Source of the DNA: Stappia indica
GTDB taxonomy: Bacteria; Pseudomonadota; Alphaproteobacteria; Rhizobiales; Stappiaceae
Direction: 5' to 3'
Length of the DNA stretch: 64,000 bases
Assembly (NCBI RefSeq): GCF_009789575.1
Contig: NZ_CP046908.1
Span: 4,927,001-4,991,000, forward strand
Under the pieces are notes generated by a model. That model was not told the origin of the DNA, did no database searches, and worked only from the letters and a program-made list of their open reading frames with translations. The number at the start of each line of letters is the position of its first letter. The stretch's first letter is position 1. This document shows, in pieces, positions 31,159-59,755 of the stretch. A program made the translations under genes and the position numbers.

Positions 31159-32163
31159 CTAAACGCCGGAGGCTTCCATCCGGTTGCGGCGCACGAAGTC
31201 GGAGGGCGTCATGCCGTATTCGCGCAGGAACAGCTGCGAGAAGCGGCTGGGATTCGCATAGCCGACCGCCAGCGCCGTCTCGGTCACCGTCGCCCCGTCG
31301 CGCGCCAGCAGCGTGCGCGCCTCCTCCATCCGCGACTTCTGCAGGAAGCTGTAGACCGGCAGGCCGAACTGCTGGCGGAACCCGTCCTTCAGCCGCTTTT
31401 CGCTGAGGCCGACGCAGGTCGCGAGGTCGTGGATCGTCCAGCTGCGGTCGAGCTGGCGCAGGAGCGTGTTCTTCGCCTCGTTGAGCTTGCGCGAGTCGCG
31501 CAGGATCTTGGTCTTCTGGCAGAACAGCGGCTCGCGCATCATCGAGATCGCGGCGGTGAGCAGGTCGAGGCAGCGCGCCTCGATGGCCAGGTCCTCGCAG
31601 CCGCGGTCGAGCCCGCTGGCGACCAGCCCGGCGGCCAGCGCGTCGATCATCTCCGTCGCCGGGAACCGGCCGACCCAGAACGAGCCGGTGGCGGCCACCG
31701 TCAGCGGATGCCCGCTCAAGGCCTGCTCGAACAGCGCCGTCGCGTCGAGCCGGCGCAGGAAGGCCTCGCTGGCGCGGATCTCGATGCCGCGGAAGCGCGT
31801 GTCCGCCGGCACGTCGTAGCCGCCGCTGAGCGGCGTCCTGGAAAAGATCATCAGCGCCGAGCGCGGATCGTAGTCCAGCCGCACGGCGCGCGGATCGCCG
31901 TCCAGCGCCCGCAGCATGCTGCTGCCGGTGGCGTGTTGCAGGATGACGATGGTCAGGCCCGGCGCCATGTTGGCTGTGCGGCGGAAACGGTCCTGCAGCT
32001 GCAGGTCGTAGACGGACAGTTCCAGCCCGAGGCGGATGCCGAAGCGACGGAATTCTCCGTCGACCGCCATCTCCGTCAGGCCGCTGTGGCTTGGCTGCCG
32101 CACCGCGAGGTCGAACTCGCTGGCAGCCTGGCTCAAAGGGCGCTCTTCGATGTTCAGAGCCAT
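31159..32163 (-). CDS. AraC-family regulator, YbtA/PchR type
   Basis: A 334-residue regulator: an N-terminal ligand-binding region of about 220 residues and a C-terminal double helix-turn-helix (about 230-330), containing IHDLATCVGLSEKRLKDGFRQQFGLPVYSFLQKSRMEEARTLL and the YANPSRFSQLFLREYGMTPSDF signature of the PchR/YbtA group (written here only as location markers near residues 243-325). In the pyochelin and yersiniabactin systems this type of protein activates synthesis and receptor genes when bound to the ferric siderophore. It is divergent from the 12.6-kb PKS/NRPS gene, exactly as expected for a pathway-specific activator. The start is ATG 32163. Confidence 0.87.
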   Translation of the reverse strand: MALNIEERPLSQAASEFDLAVRQPSHSGLTEMAVDGEFRRFGIRLGLELSVYDLQLQDRFRRTANMAPGLTIVILQHATGSSMLRALDGDPRAVRLDYDPRSALMIFSRTPLSGGYDVPADTRFRGIEIRASEAFLRRLDATALFEQALSGHPLTVAATGSFWVGRFPATEMIDALAAGLVASGLDRGCEDLAIEARCLDLLTAAISMMREPLFCQKTKILRDSRKLNEAKNTLLRQLDRSWTIHDLATCVGLSEKRLKDGFRQQFGLPVYSFLQKSRMEEARTLLARDGATVTETALAVGYANPSRFSQLFLREYGMTPSDFVRRNRMEASGV

Positions 32164-32182
32164 TCGAACCTCTCCCGGGGCT

Positions 32183-32217
32183 GTGCACCAGAAAAGTGCC
32201 TAGAGGGACTAGTGCAC
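32183..32217. promoter_or_regulatory. Possible AraC-regulator binding repeats
   Basis: GTGCAC occurs at 32183-32188 and 32212-32217, with AGTGCCTAG and CTAGTGCAC in between, giving a partly symmetric array 20-50 bp upstream of the AraC gene. YbtA/PchR regulators bind repeats in such divergent regions. Motif identity is unverified. Confidence 0.3.
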
Positions 32218-32290
32218 GCAAAAATAAGTATCGATTGGGGCCTTGCCGGCCCGGATCGGGGTAGCGGGCACGTCCATGATCTCCAATTCT

Positions 32291-32305
32291 TGACTGAAAA
32301 AGTCA
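32291..32305. promoter_or_regulatory. RirA-type iron-responsive operator (TGA-N9-TCA)
   Basis: TGACTGAAAAAGTCA matches the TGA-N9-TCA iron-responsive operator described for RirA in rhizobia; the dyad extends to TTGACT/AGTCAA. It is located 107 bp upstream of the PKS/NRPS start and between the divergent regulator and synthesis genes. It would make the locus iron-repressed, as expected for a metallophore. Confidence 0.5.
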
Positions 32306-32411
32306 ACATTTAATCGCGCTCCCCCGAAACCCGCCTGTTCCTCGAAATGCGCCATTCGCCACGGGAAAACAGACGGTTATCGCACTGCGACAGGTTAGCT
32401 GGAGTTCATGC

Positions 32412-44984
<12,573 letters not shown>

Positions 44985-45019
44985 ACCGCCATCTCCCTTC
45001 ACTTCATTCAGGACGTCCC

Positions 45020-48000
45020 ATGCGCGCTTTCGACATGAGCCTTTTCACCGAGATCTATCAGGACGTGGAACCGGTCGCGATCATCGGGGCGGGATGCCGC
45101 TTCATGGGCGCGGCGGATCCCTTCACCTTCTGGCGGCGGCTTGCCGATGGCGAGGAACTCTCGCGCCGGGTCACCGCGCAGGATCTCGCCGCTGCCGGTC
45201 TCGATCCCGCGCTGCTGGAACGGGACGACTTCGTTCCCGTCGCCAGCGTCGTCGACGAAGCCGAGCATTTCGACGCAGGCCTCTTCGGCTATTCGCCGGC
45301 GGAGGCCGCGACCATCGACCCGCAGCAGCGCCTGTTCCTCGCCTGCTCGCGCGAGGCGCTGGACATGGCAGGGCTGGCAGGCTCGGTCGCCGGCATGCGC
45401 ATCGGGGTCTTCGGCTCCGCGCGCATGAGCACTTTCGTCATGCCGCAGCCGGAGGACGTGCTGTCGGCCGGCCAGTCGCGGACCTTCCAGCGGCTGATCG
45501 GCAACGACAAGGACTATCTGGCAACGCGCACGGCCTACAAGCTGGGTCTGACGGGGCCGGCGCTGACGGTCCAGACGGCGTGCTCCAGTTCGCTGGTGGC
45601 GGTGCATGTGGCCTGCGAACAGCTGCGCAGCGGCGAATGCGATCTGGCGCTGGCCGGGGGCGCGGCGCTGACCTTCCCGATGGCCGCCGGCTATTTCCAC
45701 CAGCCGGGCATGATCTTCTCGCCCGACGGAACCTGCCGGCCCTTCGATGCGGAGGCGTCCGGCACCTTCATCGGCAATGGTGTCGGCGTCGTGCTGCTGA
45801 AGCCGCTCCGCCGGGCGCTGGAAGACGGCGACGGCATCCTTGCGGTCATCCGCGGATCGGCGGTCAACAACGACGGCACCGACAAGGCCGGCTTCACCGC
45901 GCCTTCGCTTGCCGGGCAACGGGCGGTGATCGAGGAGGCGATGGCGCTGGCCGGCGTCACCTCGGATCGCATCGGCATGGTGGAGACGCACGGGACCGCC
46001 ACGCCGCTCGGCGACCCGATCGAGCTCAATGCGCTGGCCGAGGCCTTCGGCCGCGACACGCCGCGCCGCCACCCTTGCGCGCTCGGCGCGCTGAAGGCGA
46101 ATACCGGGCATCTCGACACCGCCGCCGGCATCGGTGCGCTGATCAAGGCCGCCTTCAGCGTGCGCACCGGACTGATCGCGCCCTGCCTGCATTTTCGCAA
46201 GCCCAATCCGGCGCTGGAAATCGATGCGACGCCCTTCATCGTGCCGCAGGCGCTGCAGGCCTGGCCGGAGGGACCGCGGATCGCCGGCGTCAGCTCCTTC
46301 GGCATCGGCGGGACCAATTGCCACGTGATCGTCGAGGACCTGCCGGAGCCGCTGAAGCCGGCGCCGCGGACGGGCGAGGGTCCCTTGCGGCTCGCCCTCG
46401 CGGCGCCGGACCTGCCGGCGCTGCGCGCCCTGTCGCAGGCCCATGCGGACTTGCTGCTGGACGGCGCCTATCAGGGCGAGCTGCCGCGCTATTGCGACAC
46501 GCTGGTGCGTCAGCATCGCGGCGCAGACGGCATGCGGCTGGAGATCGGCGGCGGAGACGGGCTGGATCTTGCCCGCACACTGTCGCTGTTCGCCCGGACC
46601 GGCGGCGAGGACGAGGCCTTCGTGCAGGACAAGGACGAGGCGGCGCCGTTCTGGCGTGCCGGCGTGGCGGAGACTGAGCTGCCCGCCGGCCCTGCGGGAC
46701 CGCGCGTGGTCGCGCCGGTCGCCCCGCGCATCGGCAGCCGCATTGCCCGGCCGGGCGCGCAAGGTCAAAGGGGGGACGGCTGGCGCGAACTGGTCGCGAG
46801 TCTCGGCGAGGCGTCGCGGCTGCGCGCGGCCGAGCACGACTGGTCGTCGCTGGATGCGGAAGGCGCGGCCGTCGCCCGGCTGCACGCGATCCATGTCGCC
46901 CATGCCTTCGACAGGCTCGGCGTCTTTGCCGGCGGTGCCTGGCGCACGGTCGAGGAGGCGATGGCGGCGGGCGGCATCCTTCCGCACTACGCCCAGCTTA
47001 CCGCCCGTCTGTTGCGCGATCTCGTGGACGAAGGCGTTCTGCAACGGGAGGGGGACAGGTTCGGTGCCCTGATCGTGCCGCCGATGGGCGAGGCGGAGCC
47101 GCTGCTCGCGGACATGGCCGGGCGCGGCTATCGCCGCCTGACCGGCATGGTCGCCCGCGTCGGACCGCAGCTTGCGCAGATGCTGACCGGCGCGGTGGAT
47201 GCGGTTTCGCTGGTGTTCCCGTCCGCCGCCATGGACGACGTGGAGGACATGTACGAGCGCCAGCGCGACAGCGTCTTCCTCAACGATCTCGCCGCCGACG
47301 CGGTTGCGGCGCTCATTGAGGAACTGCCGGCCGACAAGCCCCTGCGCGTGCTGGAAGTCGGCGCAGGAACCGGCGGCACCACGTCCGCGCTGCTGCCGGT
47401 CCTGCCGACGCGGCGGACCCGCTACACCTTCACCGATATCGGGCCGCTGTTCCTGCGCAAGGCGCGCGACAAGTTCGCCGCCTTTCCGTTCCTCGACTTC
47501 GCGACGCTGGACATCGAGAAGGACCTTGTCGCCCAGGGCTTCGAGCCGGGCGGCTACGATCTCGTGGTGGCGGCCAACGTGCTGCATAACGGCCGCGACC
47601 TGACACGGGTTCTCGCCGACGTGCGCCGCCTGCTGGCGCCGGGCGGGGTTCTCCTGATGCGTGAGATTTCTGAGCCAAAGCCCCTGTTCGACTTCATTTT
47701 CGGTCCCTTGGTGCCCGTGCTCGACGACATCGAGGCGCGCGGCGGCGAGCTGTTTCCCTCGCTTGCCCGCTGGGGGACGTTCCTCACCGAGGCCGGATGG
47801 TCCGACTGGTCGTCCTTCCCGCCGCCGGAGCAGAAGGACGGCGCCATCGGCGAGAGCATTCTTCTTGCCCGCAACGGAACGCCCCCTGCGCATTCAGCGT
47901 CGGCGCTCGCCGGGCGCCAGCTCGAGACGGCGCCTGTCACCGATGCCGCAGGCCTGCTTGCCGGCCTTGCCGGACGGGCCGGCGACGGGTTCTGGCGGTT

Positions 48001-51000
48001 CGAAGGCGTGCAGCTTGCGCCGGCCGCAACACCGCAGCCCGCGCATTGGATCACTGCCGCCGACGAACTCGCCCTTGCGACGGACGAGGGGGAGCGTCTG
48101 ATCGCGGCAAGGCCCGTCCCGTTTGCCGGTGCTGCGCTGCCGCCCCTGCCTCAAGAGGGCGCGGCAGCCGTTTCCGGCCCGCTTGCCGATCTCTTGCGCC
48201 CGGTGCTTGCGGAACTGCCCGGAAAGGGCCCGCTTGTCGCCGATGCGGTCAGCGGTACGTGCGGACACCTGTCGGACGCGCGCCTTGCCGTCAGGACGCG
48301 CCAGGACGGCGGGCTGGACCTCGCCGTCTTCGACCAAGCGGACTGGCCGGCTCTGTGGATCGACAATCTCCGCAAGGGTCGGCCGGCCACTGCCGCGACG
48401 CGCCCCCAGCTCTGCCATTGGCGCTGGGAGGCTGCCAACTTCCGCGCGTCCGGCGGGCGCGTCGCGGCGGTGATCTCGCGTGCCTCCGGGTTTTTCGTGC
48501 CGCCGGGCCTGTCTGCCGGCGATACGTGCCTCGTCGATCTCGCGGATGTCGACGACGGGCTGTCTCACGCGATCCTTCATGCGGGCCTTGCCGAACTCGT
48601 TCGCGAGGCCTCGCAAGCGGGGTGCCGGCTCGTGCTGCTGACGCGCGGAGCGCTGGCCGTTGTCCCCTGGGACCGGCCGAAAGCGCCGTTTCTCGCGGGC
48701 ATTGCAGGCCTCGTGCGGGTTGCCGCCCAGGAATATCCGGGCCTGGCATTGCGGCTCGTCGACGACGACGGCAGCCATGGCGAGGACGCGCTGCATCGGG
48801 CGTGCCTTGTCGAGGACGGCGAGGCGGTCGTCGCCTTGCGCCGCGGGCGGCGCTTCGTGCCCCGTCTGGTAGCGGAGGATAATGCAGCCGTGCCGCTCGG
48901 CATGGAACGGGACGGCGTCCACCTTCTGCTCGGCGGCCTCGCGCCCATGGCCCTGGCGACGGCCGAATGGCTCGCAGGAAAAGGCGCGCGCAGCCTCCGC
49001 CTCGTCGCACGCCGCGCGCCGTCGGACGTCGAGGCCGCCCGGCTCGCCGCGCTGACCGCTGCCGGGGTTGAGGTGACCGTGGACAGCGAGGTGGACCTGA
49101 CGGACGAGAACGATCTCGACCGTCTGTTCGCCGGCATCGAGGGGCGAAGCCTTGCCTCCGTCTTCCACTTCGCCGGCCATCTGGAGGACATGCCGCTCGC
49201 GGCTCTCGATGCGGCGGCGCTGGAGCGGGTGCTGGCACCGAAGCTGCGCCCGGCCGAGGCCCTGCGCCGGCATCTTGCGCGCCTTGCGCCTGCGCGTGTG
49301 GTCTTTGCCTCCTCGGCTGCGACCGTCTTCGGCCCGGCGGGGCAGGCGGCCCATGCAATTGCCAATGCCGCCCTGGAGGGGCTGGCGGCAGCCTTGCGCG
49401 CGGACGGTGTGCCCGCGACCGCCCTTGCCTGGGGATACTGGCAGGATGGGCGCGCGGAGCGGGTGAGGCTCGCCCAGGACCTCGCCGGCCGGGGCATGCT
49501 GACGCTCGCGCCGGCCGACGCGTTGGCGCTGATGGAGACGGCGCTGCAGCGGGGGCATGCGGTGGCAAGCCCGCTGCATGTCGATTGGCAGGCGCTGACG
49601 AAGGCTGCGGGCGGACGCCTGCCGCCGGCCCTGTCGCGAATGGCGCCGGCCGCACCGGCCCGCGAGCCGGCACTTGCGCATGGGGATACTGTCGAACCTC
49701 TCGGCGTCGAGACCTGGCTTGTCGACCGTCTGGCGAGCCTGCTCGCTCTTCCGCGCGAGCGGATCGACATGCAGGCAAGCCTGCTGTCGCTGGGCGTCGA
49801 TTCCCTGATGATGTTGGAACTGGCGCAGGCGGTGAAGGGCGAGCTCGGGCTCGAGCTTTCCGGCGGCTTCGCCCTGCAGGATCATACGCCGGCCTCGCTC
49901 GCGAAGCATTTGCGCGAGGCGGGCGGCCAGATGCCGGCGGCGGCCGGAGCGGATCTCGAGGGCACCGTCAGGACGCTTGTCGCGGACCTTCTGTCGCTTC
50001 CTTCGGATGCGGTGCGCCCCGAGAGCCGGCTGATCGACCTGGGGCTCGATTCCCTGCTGTTCCTCGATCTGGCGGAGCGGCTTGCCGCCGAGACCGGGCT
50101 GCGGCTGTCGGGCGAGGCGGCCATGCGCTTCGACACGGTCGCCGCGCTGGTCGAGGGGATCCGGGCGCAAGGCGGTACGCAGGGGGATGCGGAGGCGGGA
50201 TCGCTGCGCGCGGCGCTTGATGAGCTGGCGGCAAGCCGGCCCGGCCTGTTGCTTGCCAATGGTGATCTCGCGCCGGTGCTCGCGCGCCCGGGCATGACCT
50301 GGCCGCTGTCGCCGCTCCAGCGGGCATGGTGGCTGGGCCGACGGGCAGGCGCACCGCTCGGCGGCACCGCCCGGCACATGTATGTGGAATACGACAAGGA
50401 GACGGCGAGCTTCGACCTCGACGCCTTCGAGCAGGCCTGGGCCCGGTTCGTGCAGCGCCACCCGGCCCTGCGCATGACCGTCGACGCCGAGGGCAGGGCG
50501 GTGCCGGCCGATGTCGAGACGGTTCCTGCGATCGTCCGTGAGGACCTTTCCGGCCTGCCCGACGCGGAGCGGGAGGAGCGGCTTGACGAAACCCGCCGGC
50601 GCATGAGCGCACAGGCCTTCGACCTGTCCGCCTGGCCGTTCTTCGAATGGCGCGCCTCGCTGCTGCCGGAAGGGCGCATTCGCCTGCATTTCGATATCGA
50701 CACGACCTTCCTCGATATCGAGAGCTTCCAGGTGATGCTGCGCGAACTGGGACGGCATGTGGCCGATCCCGAGCGGGAACTGCCGCGGCTCGGCTTTTCG
50801 GCCACCGACTACATGCGCGGGATGGCGCTGCTGGGCGAGACGAAGGCCGCTGCCGTGGCGCGCAAGGCGGCCGGCGAGCGCCTTGCCGCCCTGCCGCCGG
50901 CGCCCGACCTGCCGCTTGCCGCGCTGCCCGAAACACTGCCGCCGCGGTTCGCCATCGAGCGCCGGGCGCTGGACCGCGCCTCCTGGCTTTCGGTCCGTGA

Positions 51001-51670
51001 TGCGGCCGCCAGCCGGGGTGTTTCCGGCACGGCGCTGGTGCTTGCGGCCTTCGCCGCCGGCTTGCGCGAATGGTCGGCGGACACGGGGCGGTTCTCCCTG
51101 CAACTCGCCTATCCCGACCGCAAGCCGCTGCATGCGGAGGCGATGAACATCGCCTGCGAGGCGAGCGCGGCGATGGCGGTGCCGTTCGATTTCGCCGGGG
51201 CGCCGAGTTTCGGGGACCTCATGCAGCGCACCGAGGCAGCGATCCGCGAGAACCTGTCGCCGCTGCTGTGCGGAGGGCTTGCCGAGGCGAATGCGGCACG
51301 CGACCTGCCGACGCTGGTGCTCCCGGTGGCGATGACATCGCTGCTCGGCGTGCGGCAGGCCTATGCGCTGCCGGAAAGCGCCGATCCGCTGCTCGGCATG
51401 CCGGCCTACGAATACGCCGCCCAGCCGCAGGTCGCCTTGCATTTCCAGGTGCTGGAGGAGGAGCGCGAGCTCCTGTGCAACATCGACGAGATCGCCGGCC
51501 TGTTCCCGCAAGGGCTCGCTGCCTCCGTCTTCGACACCGTGCTGGCGATCCTCTCACGGGGCGAGGAGGCGTGGTCGCTGCCGCTTGCGGATCTGGTCGG
51601 CACCAGAACGCCACCGGCTGGCGAGCTCGGCCTGCGCGCCTGGCTGGGAGGCCTCGGCCATGGCGGGTGA
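45020..51670 (+). CDS. PKS with degenerate KR and terminal Cy: KS-cMT-KR-ACP-ACP-Cy, no AT
   Basis: 2216 residues, starting at ATG 45020 (AGGAC upstream), 35 bp after the first synthase. Domains: KS about 16-445 with C188 in QTACSSS and the two KS histidines (VETHGTAT, TGHLDT); a linker of about 130 residues where an AT would normally sit, with no GHSxG; C-methyltransferase about 590-950 with an intact SAM motif VGAGTGGTT near 778; KR about 960-1540 whose loop reads GGLAPMA (1305-1311) and whose catalytic Tyr is H1445; tandem ACPs with S1595 and S1678; Cy from about 1760 with DTTFLDIES near 1894 but QVALHFQ instead of QVWLDHQ (H2141 for Asp). It resembles yersiniabactin HMWP1 minus AT and minus the C-terminal MT-PCP-TE. 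It probably adds a gem-dimethylated malonate unit. Confidence 0.92.
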   Translation: MRAFDMSLFTEIYQDVEPVAIIGAGCRFMGAADPFTFWRRLADGEELSRRVTAQDLAAAGLDPALLERDDFVPVASVVDEAEHFDAGLFGYSPAEAATIDPQQRLFLACSREALDMAGLAGSVAGMRIGVFGSARMSTFVMPQPEDVLSAGQSRTFQRLIGNDKDYLATRTAYKLGLTGPALTVQTACSSSLVAVHVACEQLRSGECDLALAGGAALTFPMAAGYFHQPGMIFSPDGTCRPFDAEASGTFIGNGVGVVLLKPLRRALEDGDGILAVIRGSAVNNDGTDKAGFTAPSLAGQRAVIEEAMALAGVTSDRIGMVETHGTATPLGDPIELNALAEAFGRDTPRRHPCALGALKANTGHLDTAAGIGALIKAAFSVRTGLIAPCLHFRKPNPALEIDATPFIVPQALQAWPEGPRIAGVSSFGIGGTNCHVIVEDLPEPLKPAPRTGEGPLRLALAAPDLPALRALSQAHADLLLDGAYQGELPRYCDTLVRQHRGADGMRLEIGGGDGLDLARTLSLFARTGGEDEAFVQDKDEAAPFWRAGVAETELPAGPAGPRVVAPVAPRIGSRIARPGAQGQRGDGWRELVASLGEASRLRAAEHDWSSLDAEGAAVARLHAIHVAHAFDRLGVFAGGAWRTVEEAMAAGGILPHYAQLTARLLRDLVDEGVLQREGDRFGALIVPPMGEAEPLLADMAGRGYRRLTGMVARVGPQLAQMLTGAVDAVSLVFPSAAMDDVEDMYERQRDSVFLNDLAADAVAALIEELPADKPLRVLEVGAGTGGTTSALLPVLPTRRTRYTFTDIGPLFLRKARDKFAAFPFLDFATLDIEKDLVAQGFEPGGYDLVVAANVLHNGRDLTRVLADVRRLLAPGGVLLMREISEPKPLFDFIFGPLVPVLDDIEARGGELFPSLARWGTFLTEAGWSDWSSFPPPEQKDGAIGESILLARNGTPPAHSASALAGRQLETAPVTDAAGLLAGLAGRAGDGFWRFEGVQLAPAATPQPAHWITAADELALATDEGERLIAARPVPFAGAALPPLPQEGAAAVSGPLADLLRPVLAELPGKGPLVADAVSGTCGHLSDARLAVRTRQDGGLDLAVFDQADWPALWIDNLRKGRPATAATRPQLCHWRWEAANFRASGGRVAAVISRASGFFVPPGLSAGDTCLVDLADVDDGLSHAILHAGLAELVREASQAGCRLVLLTRGALAVVPWDRPKAPFLAGIAGLVRVAAQEYPGLALRLVDDDGSHGEDALHRACLVEDGEAVVALRRGRRFVPRLVAEDNAAVPLGMERDGVHLLLGGLAPMALATAEWLAGKGARSLRLVARRAPSDVEAARLAALTAAGVEVTVDSEVDLTDENDLDRLFAGIEGRSLASVFHFAGHLEDMPLAALDAAALERVLAPKLRPAEALRRHLARLAPARVVFASSAATVFGPAGQAAHAIANAALEGLAAALRADGVPATALAWGYWQDGRAERVRLAQDLAGRGMLTLAPADALALMETALQRGHAVASPLHVDWQALTKAAGGRLPPALSRMAPAAPAREPALAHGDTVEPLGVETWLVDRLASLLALPRERIDMQASLLSLGVDSLMMLELAQAVKGELGLELSGGFALQDHTPASLAKHLREAGGQMPAAAGADLEGTVRTLVADLLSLPSDAVRPESRLIDLGLDSLLFLDLAERLAAETGLRLSGEAAMRFDTVAALVEGIRAQGGTQGDAEAGSLRAALDELAASRPGLLLANGDLAPVLARPGMTWPLSPLQRAWWLGRRAGAPLGGTARHMYVEYDKETASFDLDAFEQAWARFVQRHPALRMTVDAEGRAVPADVETVPAIVREDLSGLPDAEREERLDETRRRMSAQAFDLSAWPFFEWRASLLPEGRIRLHFDIDTTFLDIESFQVMLRELGRHVADPERELPRLGFSATDYMRGMALLGETKAAAVARKAAGERLAALPPAPDLPLAALPETLPPRFAIERRALDRASWLSVRDAAASRGVSGTALVLAAFAAGLREWSADTGRFSLQLAYPDRKPLHAEAMNIACEASAAMAVPFDFAGAPSFGDLMQRTEAAIRENLSPLLCGGLAEANAARDLPTLVLPVAMTSLLGVRQAYALPESADPLLGMPAYEYAAQPQVALHFQVLEEERELLCNIDEIAGLFPQGLAASVFDTVLAILSRGEEAWSLPLADLVGTRTPPAGELGLRAWLGGLGHGG

Positions 51671-52784
51671 AGTGCTGAACGTCGTCGTCTGCGGCACCTG
51701 CTTCGGCGAGCACTACCTTGCCGCCATCGCCCGGCTCGGCGGCGATGTCCGCCTGGCCGGCATTCTGGCGCGCGGCGGGGCGCGGTCGCGCGCGCTTGCC
51801 GCTCATCTGGACGTGCCGCTCTACCGGGACGTTGCGGATCTGCCGGCCGACATCGACGTGGCCTGCGTCGTGGTCCGCACCACGCTGTTCGGCGGCGACG
51901 GCACCCGCCTTGCCGAAGCGCTGCTGAAACGCGGCATCCACGTGCTGCAGGAGCACCCCGTCCATCCCGGAGAGGTGGCATCCTTGCGCCGGCAGGCGGA
52001 AGCGGCAGGCGTGCGCTACCACGTCAACAGCTTCTATCCACATCTGCCGGCTTTCCGGCACTTCATCGCCTATGCGAGCGCGGCGGGCGAACGGGCGCCG
52101 GCGGCCTTTGCCGAAGTCACCACCAGTCCGCAGCTGCTCTATTCGGCGCTCGACAGCCTTGGGCGCAGCCTCGGCTCGCTGGCCGGGCTCGACTGCGTCG
52201 GGCCGCTGGTTCCGCCGTCCGACGGGTTGCCGTTCCATGCCTTCCAGGGGCGGGTCGGCGGCGTTCCCTTCTCCCTGATGCTGCAATCCTGGCTCGACCC
52301 GTCCGATCCCGATCACCATTCGCTGGTCATGCATCGCATGGCGGTCGGCTGGCCGGAGGGGACCGTCAATCTGGTCAACAGTTTCGGCCCCGTCGTGTGG
52401 AGCCACTCGCTCTATGCGCCCGACTATCGGCAGGACGGCGAGGCGAGCTCCTACCTGCTGTCGCCGGAGCGCCATGCCGGCTGCCGCCATTTCACGCAGC
52501 CGAGCGCCCATGCGCTGGGTTCGCCCGCGGGCGCGCCGTTCTGGGACGTGGTGCATGCCGAGTTCCCCGAGGCGATCGGCCATGCGCTCGCCGAGCTGCG
52601 CCGCGCCATCGAGGCGCCAGGCAGCGTGCCCTGGCAGTCGGACGCCTATCTCGCCGATCTCGGCAAGGCCTGGCTGACCGTTCTGCGCCAGGCCGGGCCG
52701 CCGCGCGAACGCGCCATGCCGGTGCCGCCGCCGCCCCACCCCGATCCCGTCGAATTCGCAAGGACCCTCACCGATGCCGACTGA
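51660..52784 (+). CDS. Thiazolinyl imide reductase (Irp3/PchG-like)
   Basis: A 374-residue NADPH-dependent Gfo/Idh-type reductase that works in trans on the assembly line, reducing one carrier-bound thiazoline to a thiazolidine, as Irp3 (yersiniabactin) and PchG (pyochelin) do. Supporting features: length close to Irp3, the unusual nucleotide-binding motif VVVCGTCFGEHYL replacing the classic GxGxxG, EHPVHPGE near residue 100 in place of EKP, and YHVNSFYPHL near 120. The start is ATG 51660, overlapping the end of the PKS gene by 11 bp, so translational coupling is likely. Its presence argues that the product contains one thiazolidine. Confidence 0.88.
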   Translation: MAGEVLNVVVCGTCFGEHYLAAIARLGGDVRLAGILARGGARSRALAAHLDVPLYRDVADLPADIDVACVVVRTTLFGGDGTRLAEALLKRGIHVLQEHPVHPGEVASLRRQAEAAGVRYHVNSFYPHLPAFRHFIAYASAAGERAPAAFAEVTTSPQLLYSALDSLGRSLGSLAGLDCVGPLVPPSDGLPFHAFQGRVGGVPFSLMLQSWLDPSDPDHHSLVMHRMAVGWPEGTVNLVNSFGPVVWSHSLYAPDYRQDGEASSYLLSPERHAGCRHFTQPSAHALGSPAGAPFWDVVHAEFPEAIGHALAELRRAIEAPGSVPWQSDAYLADLGKAWLTVLRQAGPPRERAMPVPPPPHPDPVEFARTLTDAD

Positions 52785-54414
52785 ACCGGTCGCAGAGCGC
52801 ACCCGCAGCGCCTATTCCGCCCTCGACGAGGCTTTCGTGCAGGCCGGGCTCGACGGGCACGCGCATTTCCTCAACTGGGGCTACGAGCCGATTGCCGGCC
52901 TTGCCGACGGGGCCGTGCCCGGTCTTGCGCAGCCGGGTGCCAACGAGGCCTGCGAGCGTCTCGTCGCCGAGCTGCTGGGACCCGTTGCGCTCGATGGACT
53001 GAGGGTCGCGGACATCGGCTGCGGCCGCGGCGGCGCGCTGGACATCGTCACGCGGCGGTACCATCCGCTTGCCGCGATCGGCCTCGATCTCAGCGCCGAC
53101 AACATCGCGGGGGCCCGCCGTCTGCTGGCCGGACGACGGGTTCGCCTGCAACTGGCCGATGCCTGCGCCCTGCCGCTTGCGGATGGCAGCCAGGAGGTTG
53201 TGCTCAATCTGGAATCCTCCGGCGCCTATCCGGACATGGGCGCCTTCCTGCGTCATGTCCGCCGCGTGCTGGCACCCGGCGGGCTGTTCCTGCATGGCGA
53301 TCTCTGGCCGTCGGAGCTGGTCGGCCCGTTCCTCGAGACGATGGAGGAGATGGGTTTCGTCCTGGAAAGCCTGCGCGACGTGACGCGGCAGGTCTGCCGC
53401 GCCCGCGACCGGATGCCCGCCGGGCTGATGGCGCGCCTTGCCGGTGCCAGGCGGGCGGCGGACGTGCAGGACTATTTCGCCGCGCCCGGATCGGCCATGT
53501 ACGACTGCCTCGACCGCGGCGCGATCACCTATCTGCTCGGCCGCTGGCGGCGAAGCGCAGAAGCGGCCGGGGCGGCGGACACGGCGCTGCTGGAAACCCG
53601 CGCGGCGCGGATCGAGGCGCTGCTGGGCGAGGCGCGCGCCTCGCTTGCCGAGCGTGCCGACTGGTTCCCGTTCGGCGGGCCGAGACGTGGTGCGGATGTC
53701 AACATCCTCGCCTTTCCCCATGCGGTGGCCGGCGCTTCGGCCTTCAAGGCCTGGCAGGGCCAGTTCCCGCGCGACTGGCAGGTCTCGCCGGTGCAGCTTC
53801 CCGGCCGGGAGGGACGGATCGCCGAGCCGCCGTTCACCACGCTGTCGGCGGCCGTCGAGGCCTTGCTGCCGAAGGTGAGGCCCTACCGCGACACGCCGCT
53901 GGTCCTCCTCGGCTGGAGCCTCGGCAGCAAGATCGCGTTCGAGCTGGCGCACCGGCTGGAGCAGGAGGGCACCTGCCGGCCACTGCTGGTGGTCGCGGGC
54001 GTGTGTCCCGGCCCGCACGAGCCCTTGCCGGACCTGCGCAGTTTCTTCGGCGAGGACGGCATGGAAACGCGGCTGCGCCTGCTCGGCGGGACGCCGGAAA
54101 ACATCCTGGCGAGCGGCGAGATGCTGTCGGCGCTGCAGACGACGATGGAGGGCGACACGGCGATGGCCGCCAGCTATCGCAGCGAGGCGGTGATCCGCGC
54201 GCCGATGCTGGCGCTGTCCGCCACGCAGGACGACCTCGTCTCAAAGGAGGCGGTGGAAAGCTGGCGGCCGCGCACGGCGGGAGGCTTCACCCATCGCCGG
54301 CTCGAAGGCGGGCATTTCATGGCCCGCGACGACGCACCTGCCGTCGCCGGCGTGGTGAAGGACGCGGTCGCAGAGCGCCTGCGCCAGGGCGACCGGCAGG
54401 CGGAGGTTGCCTGA
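52774..54414 (+). CDS. Methyltransferase-thioesterase fusion
   Basis: 546 residues, overlapping the reductase gene by 11 bp. Residues about 1-280 form a class I SAM methyltransferase (VADIGCGRGG near 77-88, post-I acidic residue in GLDLSADN). Residues about 305-540 form an alpha/beta-hydrolase thioesterase of the GrsT/RifR type with nucleophile S382 in GWSLGS, an Asp in ATQDD near 487 and H514 in GGHFM. In yersiniabactin-like systems an MT and a TE end the last synthase; here both sit in a separate protein, while the last synthase ends in Cy. Inference: the MT part N-methylates the thiazolidine and the TE part releases the chain, or edits it. The stop overlaps the next start (ATGA type). Confidence 0.83.
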   Translation: MPTEPVAERTRSAYSALDEAFVQAGLDGHAHFLNWGYEPIAGLADGAVPGLAQPGANEACERLVAELLGPVALDGLRVADIGCGRGGALDIVTRRYHPLAAIGLDLSADNIAGARRLLAGRRVRLQLADACALPLADGSQEVVLNLESSGAYPDMGAFLRHVRRVLAPGGLFLHGDLWPSELVGPFLETMEEMGFVLESLRDVTRQVCRARDRMPAGLMARLAGARRAADVQDYFAAPGSAMYDCLDRGAITYLLGRWRRSAEAAGAADTALLETRAARIEALLGEARASLAERADWFPFGGPRRGADVNILAFPHAVAGASAFKAWQGQFPRDWQVSPVQLPGREGRIAEPPFTTLSAAVEALLPKVRPYRDTPLVLLGWSLGSKIAFELAHRLEQEGTCRPLLVVAGVCPGPHEPLPDLRSFFGEDGMETRLRLLGGTPENILASGEMLSALQTTMEGDTAMAASYRSEAVIRAPMLALSATQDDLVSKEAVESWRPRTAGGFTHRRLEGGHFMARDDAPAVAGVVKDAVAERLRQGDRQAEVA

Positions 54415-55184
54415 TGAACGCGCCCGTTCGAGCCGTTTCGCCCTGGTTCCCTTTCGGCCGTCCGGCCGGACGGGGCAGGGCGGTGCTTTTCGCCTTCCAC
54501 CATGCCGGCGGGGCGGCGTCCTTCTTCCATGGCTGGCGGGATCATCCGCTGCTGGCCGATCTGGATGTCTGCCCGGTCGAGCTGCCCGGCCGCGGCCGCC
54601 GCTTCCTGGAGCCGGCTTGCCGCGCTTTCGGCGAGGTTCTGGCCGGGCTCGTGCCGGCCCTGTGCGGCGCTGTTCCCGCCGGGCGGCCCGTCATCCTGTT
54701 CGGCCACAGCCTCGGGGCGCTTGTCGCGTTCGAAGCCGCGCTGGCGTTGCAGGCGCGGGGGCTGCCGCCGGCCGCCTTCATCGCCTCGGCCCGCCGCGCC
54801 CCGCAGCTGCCGACACCGCAGCCCTGGCGCCATGCCATGCCCGACGCGGCGTTGATCGGTGAATTGCGCCGTCTCGGCGGCACGCGCGACGAGGTGTTGG
54901 AGAGCGAAGAACTCCTCGAGCTGTTCCTGCCGGCGATCCGGGCGGACTTCGCCCTGACCGAGACCTATGCGCTGCGGACCGGGGCGAGGCTGGACTGCCC
55001 GGTTCTGGCCTTGCGCGGGACTGGAGACCTGGAGGTGTCGGCGGCCGACGTCGACGCCTGGGACGCGGTCTGCGGATCGCGCGTCGCGCGGGCGGACCTG
55101 CCGGGCGATCACTTCTACCTCTCCGAGCCGTCGGTGCTTGCCGACATTCTCGTTCGCCTGCGTCGCCACGCGGGGCTGGCGTGA
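54414..55184 (+). CDS. Type II thioesterase
   Basis: A 256-residue alpha/beta-hydrolase of the GrsT/YbtT group, which clears misprimed or stalled acyl chains from carrier domains. The catalytic serine is S99 in GHSLGA, the Asp lies in GTGDLEVS near 203, and the His is H233 in GDHFYL. The N-terminal FAFHHAGGAASFF is the typical type II thioesterase opening. The start ATG 54414 overlaps the preceding stop by one base. It could also be the releasing enzyme if the fused TE is the editing one. Confidence 0.87.
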   Translation: MNAPVRAVSPWFPFGRPAGRGRAVLFAFHHAGGAASFFHGWRDHPLLADLDVCPVELPGRGRRFLEPACRAFGEVLAGLVPALCGAVPAGRPVILFGHSLGALVAFEAALALQARGLPPAAFIASARRAPQLPTPQPWRHAMPDAALIGELRRLGGTRDEVLESEELLELFLPAIRADFALTETYALRTGARLDCPVLALRGTGDLEVSAADVDAWDAVCGSRVARADLPGDHFYLSEPSVLADILVRLRRHAGLA

Positions 55185-55309
55185 CATGCGGGCAACGGTG
55201 CGCAAGAGGGGGCACGAAAGGCCCCGATCGGGACTGAAGCGGGTCCGATCCGGGTGGCAGACCTTGCGAGGGCCAATTAAGGCCGGAATGTGATCGGGGT
55301 AAGCATTTC

Positions 55310-56575
55310 ATGACATCGAATCCAGGCGCGTCGGGCGCCTTCACCTTCAGGATCCTGAGCCTGTTCATCGGGCTCTACGCGGCGCAGGCCATCACCGGCA
55401 GCCTCGTGCAGACCGGTCTCCCGACCGTGCTGCGCGAGGAGGGGATGGGGCTCGACCGTATCGGCCTCCTGTCGCTGCTGTTCCTGCCCTGGGCGCTGAA
55501 GTTCCTGTGGGCGCCGCTGGTCGATCGGTTCTGCGTCGTCCGCCTCGGCCGGAGGCGATCCTGGCTGCTCGTGTGCCAGGCGCTGATCGCATTGAGCTTC
55601 GCGGTCCTGTCGCTGCTGTCGCCGGCCGGGCACTTCGAACTGATGCTCTGCATGCTGCTGGCTGTATCCGTCTTTGCCGCGACCCAGGACATCGCCACAG
55701 ATGCGCTGGCCGTCGAGGTGGTCGACGAACACCGCCGCGCGGCCGTCAGCAGCGCCGGTGTCTTCGGCGGGTATGTCGGGTTCCTGCTGGGCGTCGGCGC
55801 GTGGTTGCCGGTCTACGCCGCTTTCGGCTGGCAGGCCTCGATGCTGTTCATGGCGGGCGTCGTCGCGGTGCTGACGATCCCGGCCGTCGCCGCGCGCGGG
55901 ATCGAGGACGGCGCACCGGTTCCATTGAGCGAAGCAGCGTTTCGCCCGCGCCTTTCGGCGTCGTTCCACAGGGTCGAGTATCGCCGCGGCCTCGGCTTCA
56001 TGCTGGTCTACCAGTCGGGCCTGCGTCTCGGCATCGCGCTGATCGGGCCGTTCCTGGTCGATACGGGACTGACGCTTTCCGATATCGGCTGGCTCAAGGG
56101 AGCGGGCGGTGCGGCCGCCGGTCTGGTCGCCGCGCTCGCCATGCTGGCCGTGCTGCGGCGCCCTTCCGCGCGTGCCCTGATGCTCGCCGCCCTCGCCAAC
56201 GCAGCCCTGTTCCTGGCGCTGGCGGGCGTGTGGGCCGGTATCGTCCCCCGCGACCTCGTCGCGCCGCTGATCCTTGCCCAGTCCGCCGCCGCGGCCACGT
56301 CGATGATCGCGCTCTATGCGGTGATGATCGGCTGGTGCTCGCCGCATCAGGCCGGCACCGATTTCGCCCTGCTGCAAAGCGCCGACGCGGTGATGGCCAT
56401 CGCCTTCGGTATCGCCGCCGGCTTCATCGGCCAGGCCTTCGGACATGCTGCGGTCTTTGCCCTTGCCGCTCTTCTGCTCGTCGCCGGCGCAGTTCTCGCC
56501 CGGCGCCTCCCGATTGCTTCGGAATCGCCTCTGTCTGTCGACGGGGCGTTGGAAATACAAGGAAATCAACAATGA
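55310..56575 (+). CDS. MFS metallophore importer, RhtX/FptX type
   Basis: A 421-residue inner-membrane protein with 12 predicted membrane segments. Wording such as SLLFLPWALKFLWAPLVDR near residue 60 and ATQDIATDALAVE near 125 is characteristic of the RhtX/FptX siderophore permeases (rhizobactin 1021 and ferripyochelin uptake) and of AmpG-related MFS proteins. It would carry the metal-loaded compound from periplasm to cytoplasm. The start is ATG 55310, after a 125-bp gap, so a secondary promoter is possible. Its stop overlaps the receptor start by 4 bp, which ties both genes to one uptake function. Confidence 0.88.
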   Translation: MTSNPGASGAFTFRILSLFIGLYAAQAITGSLVQTGLPTVLREEGMGLDRIGLLSLLFLPWALKFLWAPLVDRFCVVRLGRRRSWLLVCQALIALSFAVLSLLSPAGHFELMLCMLLAVSVFAATQDIATDALAVEVVDEHRRAAVSSAGVFGGYVGFLLGVGAWLPVYAAFGWQASMLFMAGVVAVLTIPAVAARGIEDGAPVPLSEAAFRPRLSASFHRVEYRRGLGFMLVYQSGLRLGIALIGPFLVDTGLTLSDIGWLKGAGGAAAGLVAALAMLAVLRRPSARALMLAALANAALFLALAGVWAGIVPRDLVAPLILAQSAAAATSMIALYAVMIGWCSPHQAGTDFALLQSADAVMAIAFGIAAGFIGQAFGHAAVFALAALLLVAGAVLARRLPIASESPLSVDGALEIQGNQQ

Positions 56576-58590
56576 GAAGCCGTGCTCTGCTGGGTGTTTC
56601 CCTCGTCGCGATGATCGCCGTGCTGCGTCCGTTCCCCTCGCAGGCGCAGGACGCCATCGCGTCCGAGGAGCCGACCGTGCTTCCCCGCATTATCGTCTCC
56701 GCCACAAAGCGCCTGCAGGATGCGTTCGAGGCGATCGGCGAGGTTGCGACCGTCGAGGCGGACGAGCTGGAGCAGCGCGGCTTTTCCACCATCGACCGTA
56801 TCGACCGGGTGTTCCCGGACGTGTTGATCCGCCAGCGCTCGAGCCGTGCCTATTCCGGGATTACCGTGCGCGGCCAGTCGTCGGTCGACTTCTACAACCC
56901 GGCGACCCAGCTCTATGTCGACGGCCTGCCGCAGGACCAGGCGCTGTTCAGCCAGTTGCTGCCGCAGACGCTGGAGCGGGTCGAGCTGCTGTACGGGCCG
57001 CAGGGCACGCTCTACGGCCGCAACGCCATCGGCGGCGTGATCAACGTCGTCACCCACAAGCCGGAGAACGAATATTTCCTCAGCCCCGTCATCGACGTGA
57101 ACAGCCTCGGCGCTCTGGGCGGCGTGGCCTTCGGCGGCGCGCTGATCAAGGACGTGCTCTACGGCGATGCGTGGTTCAGCGCCGAGCGTGAGGACGGCGA
57201 GATGCGCGACATGATCACCGGTGAGCGCACCGGCGACAGCGAGACGATGGCCGGCCAGGCCCGCCTGCGCTACGCGCCCGTCGGCAGCCCCCTCGACATC
57301 ATGTTCTCCTATGGCCGCAGCGAACGGACCTCGGACGAGGAACGCTTCGTGATGCAGTCGATGCTGGACAGCCGCATCTCGCTGCCCGTTCCGTCCCACT
57401 ACGAGCTGACGACCGACAGCTACGGCCTCACCGCCTCCTACGATCTCGGCCCGGCGACGATCACATCGCTGACCGGCTATCAGGACCGCTCGCTGCTGCG
57501 CACGATCTTCGGCTCCTACACGCCCGAATGGCAGAAGACGTTCAACCAGGAACTGCGCATCGCCTCCAATCCGCAGGAGGGCGCGATGTTCGACTACGTC
57601 GCCGGCCTCTATTTCCAGGATCTGGATTTCCGCCGCGAGGTGCCGGCCGCGACGCTGGCCTCGCATCAGGAGATCCGCTCCTACGCGGCCTTCGGCGAAG
57701 TCACCTGGCATGCGACCGACCGGATCGACCTGACCGGTGGCCTGCGGTTCGACTACGAGGAGGTGGATGCGGCGACGACCCTTGCCGGTTTGCGCCAGAC
57801 GAACAGTGCGGATTTCTCCGCGCTCTCGCCCAAGGTGGGCGCCAGCTACAAGGTCACGGAGGACGTGCTCGTCTACGCGCTGTTCAGCACCGGCTTCAAG
57901 GCCGGCGGCTTCACCCGCGCGGTGACCCCGGCCAATATCGGCTTCTCCTACCAGCCGCAGCACAGCTACAACTATGAGGCCGGCATCAAGGCCAGCCTGT
58001 TCGACGACACGCTGGAGCTCGGTTCCTCCGTCTACTTCACGATGACGGACGACTACCAGCTCTCGGTCGGCCCGGTGACCGGCCAGTACCTGCAGAATGT
58101 CGGCGAGGTGGAGAGCAAGGGCATCAGCCTGACGGCCCGCTGGCAGCCGGTCGATCCCTTCATGCTGTCGGGCGGCATCGCCTTCAACGACAGCTATTTC
58201 AGCAGCTACAACAATCCCGCCAATCCGGGCGTCAACCTGACCGGAAACACGGTTCCCTACGCCCCGGATGTCACGGCCAACCTGACCGCGGCCTACACGT
58301 TCGGCCTGCCGGGCGAGTTCGGCGACCTGACCGCCCGGGCCGGCGTCACCTATGTCGGCAAGACCTGGTTCGACGAGGCGAACACCGTCGGACAGGGCGC
58401 CTATGCGCTGCTCGACGCGGGACTGTCCTGGAAGCATGGCGAGCATGTCGTCGCGGACTTCTACGTCGACAACATCACCGACGAAACCTATGCGGTCTAC
58501 GGTTTCGACTCCGCCGGCGCCGGCTTCGGCAATGTCTACCAGCTCGGCCAGGGGCGCACGATCGGCGGCCGCCTCAAGATCACGTTCTGA
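56572..58590 (+). CDS. TonB-dependent outer-membrane receptor, FyuA-like
   Basis: 672 residues, nearly the length of FyuA, the yersiniabactin/pesticin receptor. A signal peptide (to about residue 25, ending SQAQ) is followed by a TonB box (PRIIVSA, about 38-44), a plug with ITVRGQSSVDFYNPATQLYVDG near 98 and RVELLYGPQGTLYG near 138, and a beta-barrel ending in the terminal aromatic LKITF. The DFYNPA...LYVDG wording matches what I recall of FyuA. The start ATG 56572 overlaps the MFS gene (ATGA). Predicted to import the metal complex of the compound made by this locus. It could also take up related foreign metallophores. Confidence 0.9.
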   Translation: MRSRALLGVSLVAMIAVLRPFPSQAQDAIASEEPTVLPRIIVSATKRLQDAFEAIGEVATVEADELEQRGFSTIDRIDRVFPDVLIRQRSSRAYSGITVRGQSSVDFYNPATQLYVDGLPQDQALFSQLLPQTLERVELLYGPQGTLYGRNAIGGVINVVTHKPENEYFLSPVIDVNSLGALGGVAFGGALIKDVLYGDAWFSAEREDGEMRDMITGERTGDSETMAGQARLRYAPVGSPLDIMFSYGRSERTSDEERFVMQSMLDSRISLPVPSHYELTTDSYGLTASYDLGPATITSLTGYQDRSLLRTIFGSYTPEWQKTFNQELRIASNPQEGAMFDYVAGLYFQDLDFRREVPAATLASHQEIRSYAAFGEVTWHATDRIDLTGGLRFDYEEVDAATTLAGLRQTNSADFSALSPKVGASYKVTEDVLVYALFSTGFKAGGFTRAVTPANIGFSYQPQHSYNYEAGIKASLFDDTLELGSSVYFTMTDDYQLSVGPVTGQYLQNVGEVESKGISLTARWQPVDPFMLSGGIAFNDSYFSSYNNPANPGVNLTGNTVPYAPDVTANLTAAYTFGLPGEFGDLTARAGVTYVGKTWFDEANTVGQGAYALLDAGLSWKHGEHVVADFYVDNITDETYAVYGFDSAGAGFGNVYQLGQGRTIGGRLKITF

Positions 58591-58600
58591 GGCGGAGGGC

Positions 58601-59755
58601 ATGCGGATCCTGATCTCGGGCGCGGGGCCTGCCGGTCTTGCGCTCGCCAACTGCCTGCTCGATGCGGGCCTGTCGCCGGTGGTGGTGGAGAAGGCGCCGA
58701 CTTTGCGCACGGCCGGCTATGCGGTCGGCCTGCATCTCGGCGGCTGGGAGGTCGCCGAGCGCCTCGGCCTGATCGAGGCGCTGAAAGCGCGGGCGATATC
58801 GATCCAGCGGGCCGACTATCGCGACGCGCAGGGTCGCAAGCTGTTCTCCTACAATTATCGGCACCTTTCGGCAGCCTGCGGCGACCGCATGCTGGTGATC
58901 ATGCGCGATGCGTTGCAGGAGGTTCTGGTCGAGCGGCTGGCGGGGCGGGTGCCGATCCGGTACGGGACCACCGTCACCGCCCTTGCCGATGAGGGCAAGG
59001 CGGTGGAGGTCGAACTTTCGGACGGGTCGCGCGAGCGCTTCGATCTGGTGGTTGCGGCCGATGGCTATCGCAGCGGCGTCCGGGACCTGCATTTCGGCCC
59101 GCATTCGGCGTTTCTGAAACCGCTCGGCTATCGCAGCGCCGCCTGGCGCATGCCATCCTCGCAGGCGATGGACTGCGACTACGCAGCCTTCATGGATATC
59201 GACCTGCAGGCCGGCCTCTACCGGGTCGGCGACGGCACGGTGGCGACGCTGTTCTGCTGGCGCGACGACGACATGTCCCGCGTGCCGGCGGATCAGCGCA
59301 CGGCCGAACTCGTCAGCCGGTTCTCGCACTGGCCGGCGCTGATTTCGGACACGTTCCGGGACGGCGTCGAGTGGTCGGACGGCTTCTTCGACACGATCTG
59401 CCAGGTCGAGGTGCCGCAGTGGTCGCGTGGGCGGGTCGTCCTCTTGGGCGATGCGGCGCATTGCATGACGTTCCTGTCGGGGCAGGGCACCTCGACGGCG
59501 GTCGTCGGGGCGCATGTGCTGGCGTCCGAGCTCGCGGCGCGGCCGCTGGACGAGGCGCTTGCCGCCTACGAGGCGCGGCTTCGGCCCGTGGCTTTGAGGC
59601 TCCAGAAACAGTCGGAGAAGATCGGCGGGCACTATGTGCCGCGCAGCCGCTTCGGCCTTGCGGTCCAGTCCTGGATCATTCCGGCGTTGATGCGTCCACC
59701 GCTGGTCCGCCTGATGGCGCGCAAGATGGAGGCCTCCTCGCCGTCCATCGGGTGA
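58601..59755 (+). CDS. FAD-dependent aromatic monooxygenase-like protein
   Basis: 384 residues of the PHBH/UbiH-like flavoprotein group: N-terminal dinucleotide motif GAGPAGLALAN (6-16), VVAADGYRSGVR near 148-159 and the second FAD motif GDAAHCMTFLSGQGTS near 284. Proteins of this type hydroxylate aromatic or other activated substrates, or give antibiotic resistance. The start is ATG 58601, 10 bp after the receptor stop, with GGCGGAGGGC as ribosome site, so it belongs to the same transcript. It could tailor the alkylphenol ring or help break down the imported complex. No such gene is needed for yersiniabactin, and its role is open. Confidence 0.8.
   Translation: MRILISGAGPAGLALANCLLDAGLSPVVVEKAPTLRTAGYAVGLHLGGWEVAERLGLIEALKARAISIQRADYRDAQGRKLFSYNYRHLSAACGDRMLVIMRDALQEVLVERLAGRVPIRYGTTVTALADEGKAVEVELSDGSRERFDLVVAADGYRSGVRDLHFGPHSAFLKPLGYRSAAWRMPSSQAMDCDYAAFMDIDLQAGLYRVGDGTVATLFCWRDDDMSRVPADQRTAELVSRFSHWPALISDTFRDGVEWSDGFFDTICQVEVPQWSRGRVVLLGDAAHCMTFLSGQGTSTAVVGAHVLASELAARPLDEALAAYEARLRPVALRLQKQSEKIGGHYVPRSRFGLAVQSWIIPALMRPPLVRLMARKMEASSPSIG

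What the first reader, a model, noticed from the sequence alone, without database searches (positions are those of the whole stretch)
31159..59755. Yersiniabactin/micacocidin-like metallophore locus predicted to make a two-ring product
Gene and domain content (YbtA/PchR regulator, FAAL-iterative PKS, Cy-A-PCP-Cy-PCP, KS-cMT-KR, Irp3-like reductase, MT-TE, type II TE, RhtX-type importer, FyuA-like receptor) defines a thiazoline metallophore pathway. Only two functional-looking Cy domains and two PCPs exist, so I infer alkylphenol-thiazoline-(N-methyl)thiazolidine-C(CH3)2-acid, the general layout I recall for agrochelin, rather than the three-ring micacocidin. Compound identity is inference from domain logic and memory.
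Basis: partly seen in the sequence, partly recalled or inferred. Interest (0 to 1): 0.85.

Follow-up and report, generated by a model that had tools for sequence, protein, structure and literature searches.

The report
Agrochelin-type iron-scavenger gene cluster
A marine bacterium carries a gene cluster for a two-ring sulfur-containing iron-binding molecule of the agrochelin type, a kind already described in this genus; the added details are its insertion site, a likely on-switch in the DNA and an oddly conserved leftover-looking enzyme domain.

Summary
It is not new. The genome looks like Stappia, and an agrochelin/massiliachelin cluster with agrochelin II was published for four Stappia species in 2026 (PMC12997852, MIBiG BGC0002764); the same planar compound, massiliachelin, was assigned to such a locus in Massilia (PMC6604713).

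What I add, counting the window among the aligned copies. (1) Cy1 and Cy2 keep the catalytic Asp; a third, C-terminal Cy-like domain has His there in 8 of 8 copies, yet is under purifying selection. (2) The dimethylating PKS module has no AT, and its ketoreductase has His for Tyr in 8 of 8, so decay is unlikely. (3) The 8-residue epimerase-domain insertion, the published argument for 14S, is in 4 of 4 Stappia copies and 0 of 4 others, but the key His is kept and the domain is not clearly less constrained than without it. (4) Two Rhizobium strains carry the gene set without the insertion. (5) A tandem repeat lies in both promoter regions. (6) A related strain shows the empty site: 28.58 kb inserted, matching the stated coordinates.

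The parts
31159..32163 (-). AraC-family regulator (YbtA/PchR position)
   Evidence: PF12833/PF00165; 62% identical gene at the same place in Rhizobium rhizoryzae
32231..32265 (+). candidate regulator operator 1: tandem repeat CCGATYNGG-N12-CSGATCNNGGTRGC between the divergent regulator and synthetase genes
32412..44984 (+). AgrA-type hybrid synthetase FAAL-ACP-KS-AT-KR-ACP-Cy1-A(MTe)-PCP1-Cy2-PCP2, 4190 aa
   Evidence: Pfam; motifs
38904..40211 (+). Cy1, catalytic motifs intact (DMLINDAMS, TPQVWLD)
40317..41357 (+). adenylation core; signature read by eye with recalled numbering fits Cys
   Evidence: Pfam; aligned with BmdB
41679..42761 (+). methyltransferase-like epimerase (MTe) inserted in the A domain; key His (NALHR) kept
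42315..42338 (+). 8-residue Stappia-specific insertion in MTe, between helix A and strand 2
   Evidence: present in 4 of 4 Stappia rows, absent in 4 of 4 others; low-confidence model
43269..44591 (+). Cy2, catalytic motifs intact (DNLVCDGRS, TPQVWID)
45020..51670 (+). AgrB-type PKS: KS-cMT-KR-ACP-ACP-Cy3*, no AT
   Evidence: Pfam
48914..49447 (+). KR with catalytic Tyr replaced by His (about 49352-49354)
   Evidence: 8 of 8 aligned copies, window included, have His
50303..51580 (+). C-terminal Cy-like domain Cy3*, catalytic Asp replaced by His (about 51440-51442)
51660..52784 (+). thiazolinyl imide reductase (Irp3/YbtU type)
   Evidence: TIGR01761 369 bits, cut-off 189
52774..54414 (+). methyltransferase-thioesterase; inferred N-methylation and chain release
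   Evidence: PF00975, PF08241
54414..55184 (+). type II thioesterase
   Evidence: PF00975, GHSLG
55224..55258 (+). candidate regulator operator 2 upstream of the import genes
55310..56575 (+). MFS transporter, best NCBIfam hit RhtX/FptX but below cut-off
56572..58590 (+). TonB-dependent receptor, siderophore type by best hit
   Evidence: PF00593, PF07715; TIGR01783 slightly below cut-off
58601..59755 (+). FAD-dependent monooxygenase, last gene of the conserved unit, role unknown
   Evidence: PF01494; 62% in both Rhizobium loci

Best explanation
It is an agrochelin/massiliachelin-type siderophore cluster, most likely making agrochelin II or a close stereoisomer. Inferred route, following the published massiliachelin scheme: the FAAL loads hexanoate onto the first ACP; the iterative KS-AT-KR-ACP adds three malonates to make 6-pentylsalicyl; Cy1-A-PCP1 adds the first cysteine as a thiazoline; Cy2-PCP2 adds the second, loaded by the same A domain; the reductase turns ring two into a thiazolidine; KS-cMT-KR-ACP adds one malonate (supplied by an AT in trans), methylates it twice and reduces the ketone; the MT-TE protein N-methylates and releases a two-ring hydroxy-dimethyl acid. 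The C-terminal Cy-like domain makes no ring. The ferric complex returns through the TonB receptor and MFS carrier, and the AraC regulator switches on both operons through the tandem repeat. Domain content, motif states, conservation and insertion site are shown here; product, order of steps, AT source, transport and regulation are inferred.
For: Domains. Two intact Cy domains and one with the catalytic Asp replaced. No counterpart here of the Cy-A-MT-PCP-TE protein found in S. symbiotica. Same constitution isolated from Massilia and Stappia, with loss of micH as the stated reason for two rings; route proposed in PMC10291242 (first of four parts and passages). Four of 14 genus genomes hold the full-length AgrB, the same number of Stappia species clusters as in print. 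Operator at both promoters in the window and in 5 of 5 alphaproteobacterial relatives scanned.
Against: No product measured from this genome. Starter length is not fixed by sequence; the Stappia paper reports masses consistent with longer and shorter chains. The replaced KR Tyr would normally predict no hydroxyl. The Massilia, Ralstonia and MIBiG sequences were not compared directly. The operator pattern was derived from the same kind of sites it then finds, and 3 of 100 shuffles of the window also held two matches at the loosest setting. Carrier and receptor score below their curated cut-offs.
Confidence: 0.88

Rival explanations
1. The third Cy domain is active and the product has three rings, as in micacocidin or yersiniabactin, with cysteine loaded in trans.
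For: Cy3* keeps DTTFLDIES (DxxxxDxxS) and is under purifying selection, omega 0.16-0.23 in six Stappia pairs and 0.147 in the Rhizobium pair.
Against: Catalytic Asp is His and the Thr of TPQV is Gln; no carrier domain follows it; no extra Cy-A-MT-PCP-TE gene; known Stappia and Massilia products have two rings.
Confidence: 0.04
2. Same pathway, but the main product differs from agrochelin II in chain length or stereochemistry (for example 14R), because the epimerase is active.
For: MTe keeps the His that falls on PchE H1204 (by end-point arithmetic) and evolves under purifying selection, omega 0.21-0.30 in six Stappia pairs against 0.195 (0.14-0.27) in the Rhizobium pair without the insertion, intervals overlapping; the insertion sits in a loop predicted away from the SAM site.
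Against: The published NMR data were read as agrochelin II with 14S, partly from this domain. MTe is the least constrained of the five domains bootstrapped, in every one of the six Stappia pairs. The fold model has low confidence.
Confidence: 0.3
3. The cluster is silent or decayed.
For: In the Stappia paper the antibacterial activity appeared only with succinate as carbon source (abstract).
Against: No broken frame in the cluster genes; catalytic motifs kept; low omega in enzymatic domains; two candidate operators kept.
Confidence: 0.03

Closest known systems
Agrochelin/agrochelin II cluster of Stappia quadratibracata 28M-7 (MIBiG BGC0002764, PMC12997852)
   Same: Genus (from named relatives at 85-92% AgrB identity), single Cys A domain, 8-residue MTe insertion, Tyr to His in a KR
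   Different: No difference shown; the record was not held, so no direct alignment was made. The paper's sentence places the Tyr to His change in AgrA; here it is in the second (AgrB-like) synthetase and the first keeps Tyr
Massiliachelin cluster of Massilia sp. NR 4-1 (MIBiG BGC0002687, PMC6604713)
   Same: micC- and micG-type synthetases, reductase, no MicH, two-ring product, by print
   Different: By the 2026 paper massiliachelin MTe lacks the 8-residue insertion; product assigned 14R; sequence not compared here
Micacocidin cluster (Ralstonia)
   Same: Shared synthetase families by print
   Different: Has the extra MicH module for a further thiazoline, by print; Ralstonia DNA was not fetched
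Yersiniabactin synthetase HMWP2/HMWP1
   Same: Cy-A(E)-PCP-Cy-PCP layout, reductase, AraC regulator
   Different: By print (passages), HMWP1 brings a third Cy with PCP3 and PKS domains including AT, and the starter is salicyl; here no AT in the second PKS, no ring-forming third Cy, FAAL-iterative PKS start
Clusters in Rhizobium sp. FKY42 (L006) and on a R. rhizoryzae megaplasmid (L028), uncharacterised
   Same: Regulator-to-monooxygenase gene set, 52-70% per protein (regulator only partly seen in L006), both operators
   Different: No MTe insertion

Membership tests
agrochelin/massiliachelin biosynthetic cluster | FAAL plus iterative PKS fused to Cy-A(MT)-PCP-Cy-PCP | tested here: met
agrochelin/massiliachelin biosynthetic cluster | second PKS with KS, cMT, KR, ACP | tested here: met
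agrochelin/massiliachelin biosynthetic cluster | thiazolinyl imide reductase | tested here: met
   TIGR01761 above cut-off
agrochelin/massiliachelin biosynthetic cluster | no MicH-type further thiazoline module | tested here: met
   no such gene between 31159 and 59755; present in S. symbiotica
agrochelin/massiliachelin biosynthetic cluster | product C23H34N2O4S2, m/z 467.20 | not testable with these tools
   needs LC-MS
agrochelin II (Stappia) subtype | 8-residue insertion in MTe | tested here: met
   4 of 4 Stappia rows, 0 of 4 others
agrochelin II (Stappia) subtype | epimerase inactive, 14S | tested here: inconclusive
   His kept; omega 0.21-0.30, not clearly above the Rhizobium pair; insertion loop predicted away from active site
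yersiniabactin/micacocidin (three-ring) | third ring-forming Cy with its PCP | tested here: not met
   Cy3* lacks catalytic Asp and has no downstream PCP
RhtX/FptX transporter family | score above TIGR02718 cut-off | tested here: not met
   159.6 of 356 bits
YbtA/PchR regulator | siderophore-dependent AraC activator binding cluster promoters | tested here: inconclusive
   AraC family and candidate operators; binding not testable

The most novel reading that the evidence does not exclude
The C-terminal Cy-like domain is a repurposed condensation-fold domain, with a conserved His in place of the ring-forming Asp, that serves hand-off or release of the finished chain to the separate MT-TE protein; together with a ketoreductase working with His instead of Tyr and an AT supplied in trans, it makes this PKS module a distinct catalytic type shared by two-ring and three-ring pathways.
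Probability: 0.3. Interest if true: 0.6.

Novelty: already known. Interest (0 to 1): 0.36.

Why it matters
The cluster type and its two-ring product are in print, so the finding itself is confirmatory. What could matter: the KR result turns a published puzzle (a product hydroxyl despite a KR predicted inactive) into a testable claim about His-based ketoreduction; the Rhizobium loci are candidates for how the original Agrobacterium agrochelin is made; and the published explanation for the Stappia stereochemistry looks weaker than stated.

Tried and rejected
Three-ring product: rejected on Cy3* motifs and the missing extra module. Decayed cluster: rejected on intact frames, motifs and omega. Dead epimerase from the 8-residue insertion: not confirmed; the kept His and purifying selection argue against simple loss, but the question stays open. 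Structure models of MTe and Cy3* came out with mean pLDDT 49.6 and 48.5, so no fold search was run and only secondary structure of the better part of MTe is used. A search for a betaproteobacterial copy found none (0 of 399 genomes), but it had no positive control and the centre genome is only presumed betaproteobacterial. Direct repeats or mobility genes at the ends were not seen in the stretches printed; this was not a systematic search. A match in Granulosicoccus (L007) shows only synthetase pieces in the 24 kb fetched and was dropped from the alignments. For the comparison with a longer pathway I used a Serratia symbiotica plasmid rather than the Salmonella yersiniabactin plasmids listed or a Ralstonia megaplasmid, none of which I fetched.

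Full report
Where it is. The window lies at 4927001-4991000 of a 5.117 Mb single-contig genome. The closest named relatives of its second synthetase are Stappia sp. SP245, WLB 29 and TSB10P1A at 85-92% identity, so the genome is read as Stappia; its name is not given. Four of 14 genomes of its genus hold the full-length second synthetase. The 2026 paper on Stappia quadratibracata reports the agrochelin cluster in six strains of four Stappia species (PMC12997852, section 16), so this locus, or a near twin, has very probably been counted already; that is inference.

What is there. Pfam and NCBIfam give an AraC regulator; a 4190-residue FAAL-ACP-KS-AT-KR-ACP-Cy-A(MT)-PCP-Cy-PCP protein; a KS-cMT-KR-ACP-ACP-Cy-like protein without an AT match; a thiazolinyl imide reductase; MT-TE; type II TE; MFS carrier; TonB receptor; FAD monooxygenase. 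AT is also missing from the second synthetase of R. rhizoryzae, Undibacterium and S. symbiotica (3 of 3 scanned), so an AT must act in trans in all of them; which one is not known.

Why two rings. Cy1 and Cy2 of the window carry DxxxxDxxS and TPQVxxD, the latter in 8 of 8 aligned copies each, window included. The C-terminal domain of the second synthetase matches solved Cy domains at E 2e-41 at best, against 2e-102 for Cy2 and 4e-93 for Cy1. There TPQVWLD reads QPQVALH. The Asp is read as PchE D480, from the spacing T474-D480-Q482 given in a passage of PMC8807600. It is His in the 7 aligned copies that cover the site and in the separate piece of the split Undibacterium gene: 8 of 8, with Gln for the Thr in all. 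DIES of the other motif is kept in 8 of 8, its first Asp in 7 of 8. S. symbiotica has the same altered domain and, besides, a separate Cy-A-MT-PCP-TE protein. So the extra protein, not the C-terminal domain, most likely decides the number of rings; this is inference, since the S. symbiotica product is not known to me. Nei-Gojobori omega for Cy3* is 0.16-0.23 over all six Stappia pairs and 0.147 in the Rhizobium pair, against 0.07-0.12 for Cy1 and Cy2: constrained, about twofold more loosely. It may have another role.

Ketoreductase. The 2026 paper notes a Tyr to His change in KR domains of this cluster and of yersiniabactin and micacocidin synthetases, and a conflict with the hydroxyl in the product (section 17). 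That sentence names AgrA; in the window the His is in the second synthetase, while the first keeps Tyr (8 of 8 copies). His in the second is in 8 of 8 copies from alpha-, beta- and gammaproteobacteria, and omega for the domain is 0.11-0.17. I read this as a conserved, working variant rather than loss; I saw no assay.

Stereochemistry. The paper ascribes 14S in agrochelin II to an 8-residue insertion disabling the epimerase domain. I find the insertion (window 42315-42338) in 4 of 4 Stappia copies and in 0 of 4 others (R. rhizoryzae, Rhizobium FKY42, Undibacterium, S. symbiotica). But the His of NALHR (NSLHR in R. rhizoryzae) is kept in 8 of 8; from the end point of the profile match to PchE (profile 323 at residue 1246) it falls on H1204, which PMC8807600 calls essential (passage), if no gap intervenes. 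By the same arithmetic PchE's proposed acid E1234 falls on an Asn that is invariant here with and without the insertion, which speaks neither way. The insertion lies between helix A and strand 2 in the model (blocks 201-250 at pLDDT 55-74, mean of the whole 49.6) and in the alignment to CurJ, which in this fold is away from the SAM pocket (general knowledge). Omega for the domain is 0.21-0.30 in six Stappia pairs, bootstrap intervals 0.15-0.44, and 0.195 (0.14-0.27) in the Rhizobium pair: overlapping, though the domain is looser than Cy1, Cy2, Cy3* and KR in every Stappia pair. The pairs share branches and are not independent. So the explanation in print is possible but not secured.

Relatives. 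The reductase was found, at E 1e-40, in 3 of 398 genomes drawn from the phylum (own included), 2 of 397 from the order (both of the window's genus, own included), 2 of 297 from the family of Rhizobium FKY42 (FKY42 included), and 0 of 399 from another family presumed betaproteobacterial. Rhizobium FKY42 and R. rhizoryzae carry the synthetase-to-monooxygenase genes at 52-70% identity, with the regulator complete in R. rhizoryzae and cut by the locus end in FKY42. Agrochelin was first reported from a marine Agrobacterium (PMC6604713), and these are Rhizobiaceae without the insertion, so they are candidates for its genetic source. The one search for agrochelin with Rhizobium found no paper in the held library, and the 2026 paper's main text has no word beginning with 'Rhizob'.

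Regulation. The pattern CCGATYNGG-N12-CSGATCNNGGTRGC was read off the window and Rhizobium promoters. In the window at up to 3 mismatches it occurs twice, at 32231 and 55224, against 0.21 expected; 3 of 100 shuffles also reached two. In the whole genome six places match at up to 2 mismatches, of which only these two have at most 1; the reversed control has none. At up to 1 mismatch it stands at both promoter positions in 5 of 5 alphaproteobacterial relatives scanned (L003, L004, L005, L006, L028); Undibacterium has one at 2 mismatches between its divergent receptor and synthetase genes; S. symbiotica has none at up to 4; three stray places appear at 4 mismatches, in the window, L003 and L006. 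The derivation is partly circular, so binding must be tested.

Insertion. In G001, which lacks the full-length synthetase, homology to the window runs to 31170 and resumes at 59751, leaving 60 bases in place of 28,580. In G011 this site is also empty (flanking genes about 1.1 kb apart) although its cluster sits on another contig; there too homology ends at window 31165 on the left, while its right end was not fetched. G007 has the cluster between the same flanking genes as the window. In the remaining genomes the two flanking genes are not neighbours or one is missing. G+C is 70-72% over 32-56 kb against 68.1% for the window. The unit has moved within the genus; how is not known.

Limits. No product data from this genome; Massilia, Ralstonia and MIBiG sequences not compared; supplementary files not read; the Cys signature of the A domain was read by eye with recalled numbering.

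Noticed in passing
window 31171-59750: The cluster is a clean insertion between a saccharopine-dehydrogenase-like gene and a region that by eye starts with a MerR-like and a cytochrome-like frame, followed by liv transporter genes; the site is empty in G001 and G011, and G011 has the cluster on another contig.
   Followed up: partly
window 58601-59755: FAD monooxygenase is the last gene in the Stappia and both Rhizobium loci, and a 33% relative lies in the Undibacterium locus, though the agrochelin structure does not obviously need such a step; role unexplained.
   Followed up: no
G000:C1:4421091-4458807: Many KS matches in very long open frames, fitting a large PKS such as the trans-AT sesbanimide cluster reported for Stappia; a possible but not general source of a trans AT.
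   Followed up: no
L030:1575-7028: Serratia symbiotica plasmid carries a related cluster with an extra Cy-A-MT-PCP-TE protein, as expected of a micacocidin-like pathway.
   Followed up: partly
L029:6983-26735: Undibacterium plasmid has a related cluster with both synthetases split over separately annotated genes; the second split falls inside the C-terminal Cy-like domain.
   Followed up: partly
window 27625-29736: Left neighbour frame (703 aa, minus strand) reads like a membrane antiporter at its start, by eye only; no family scan was run on it.
   Followed up: no
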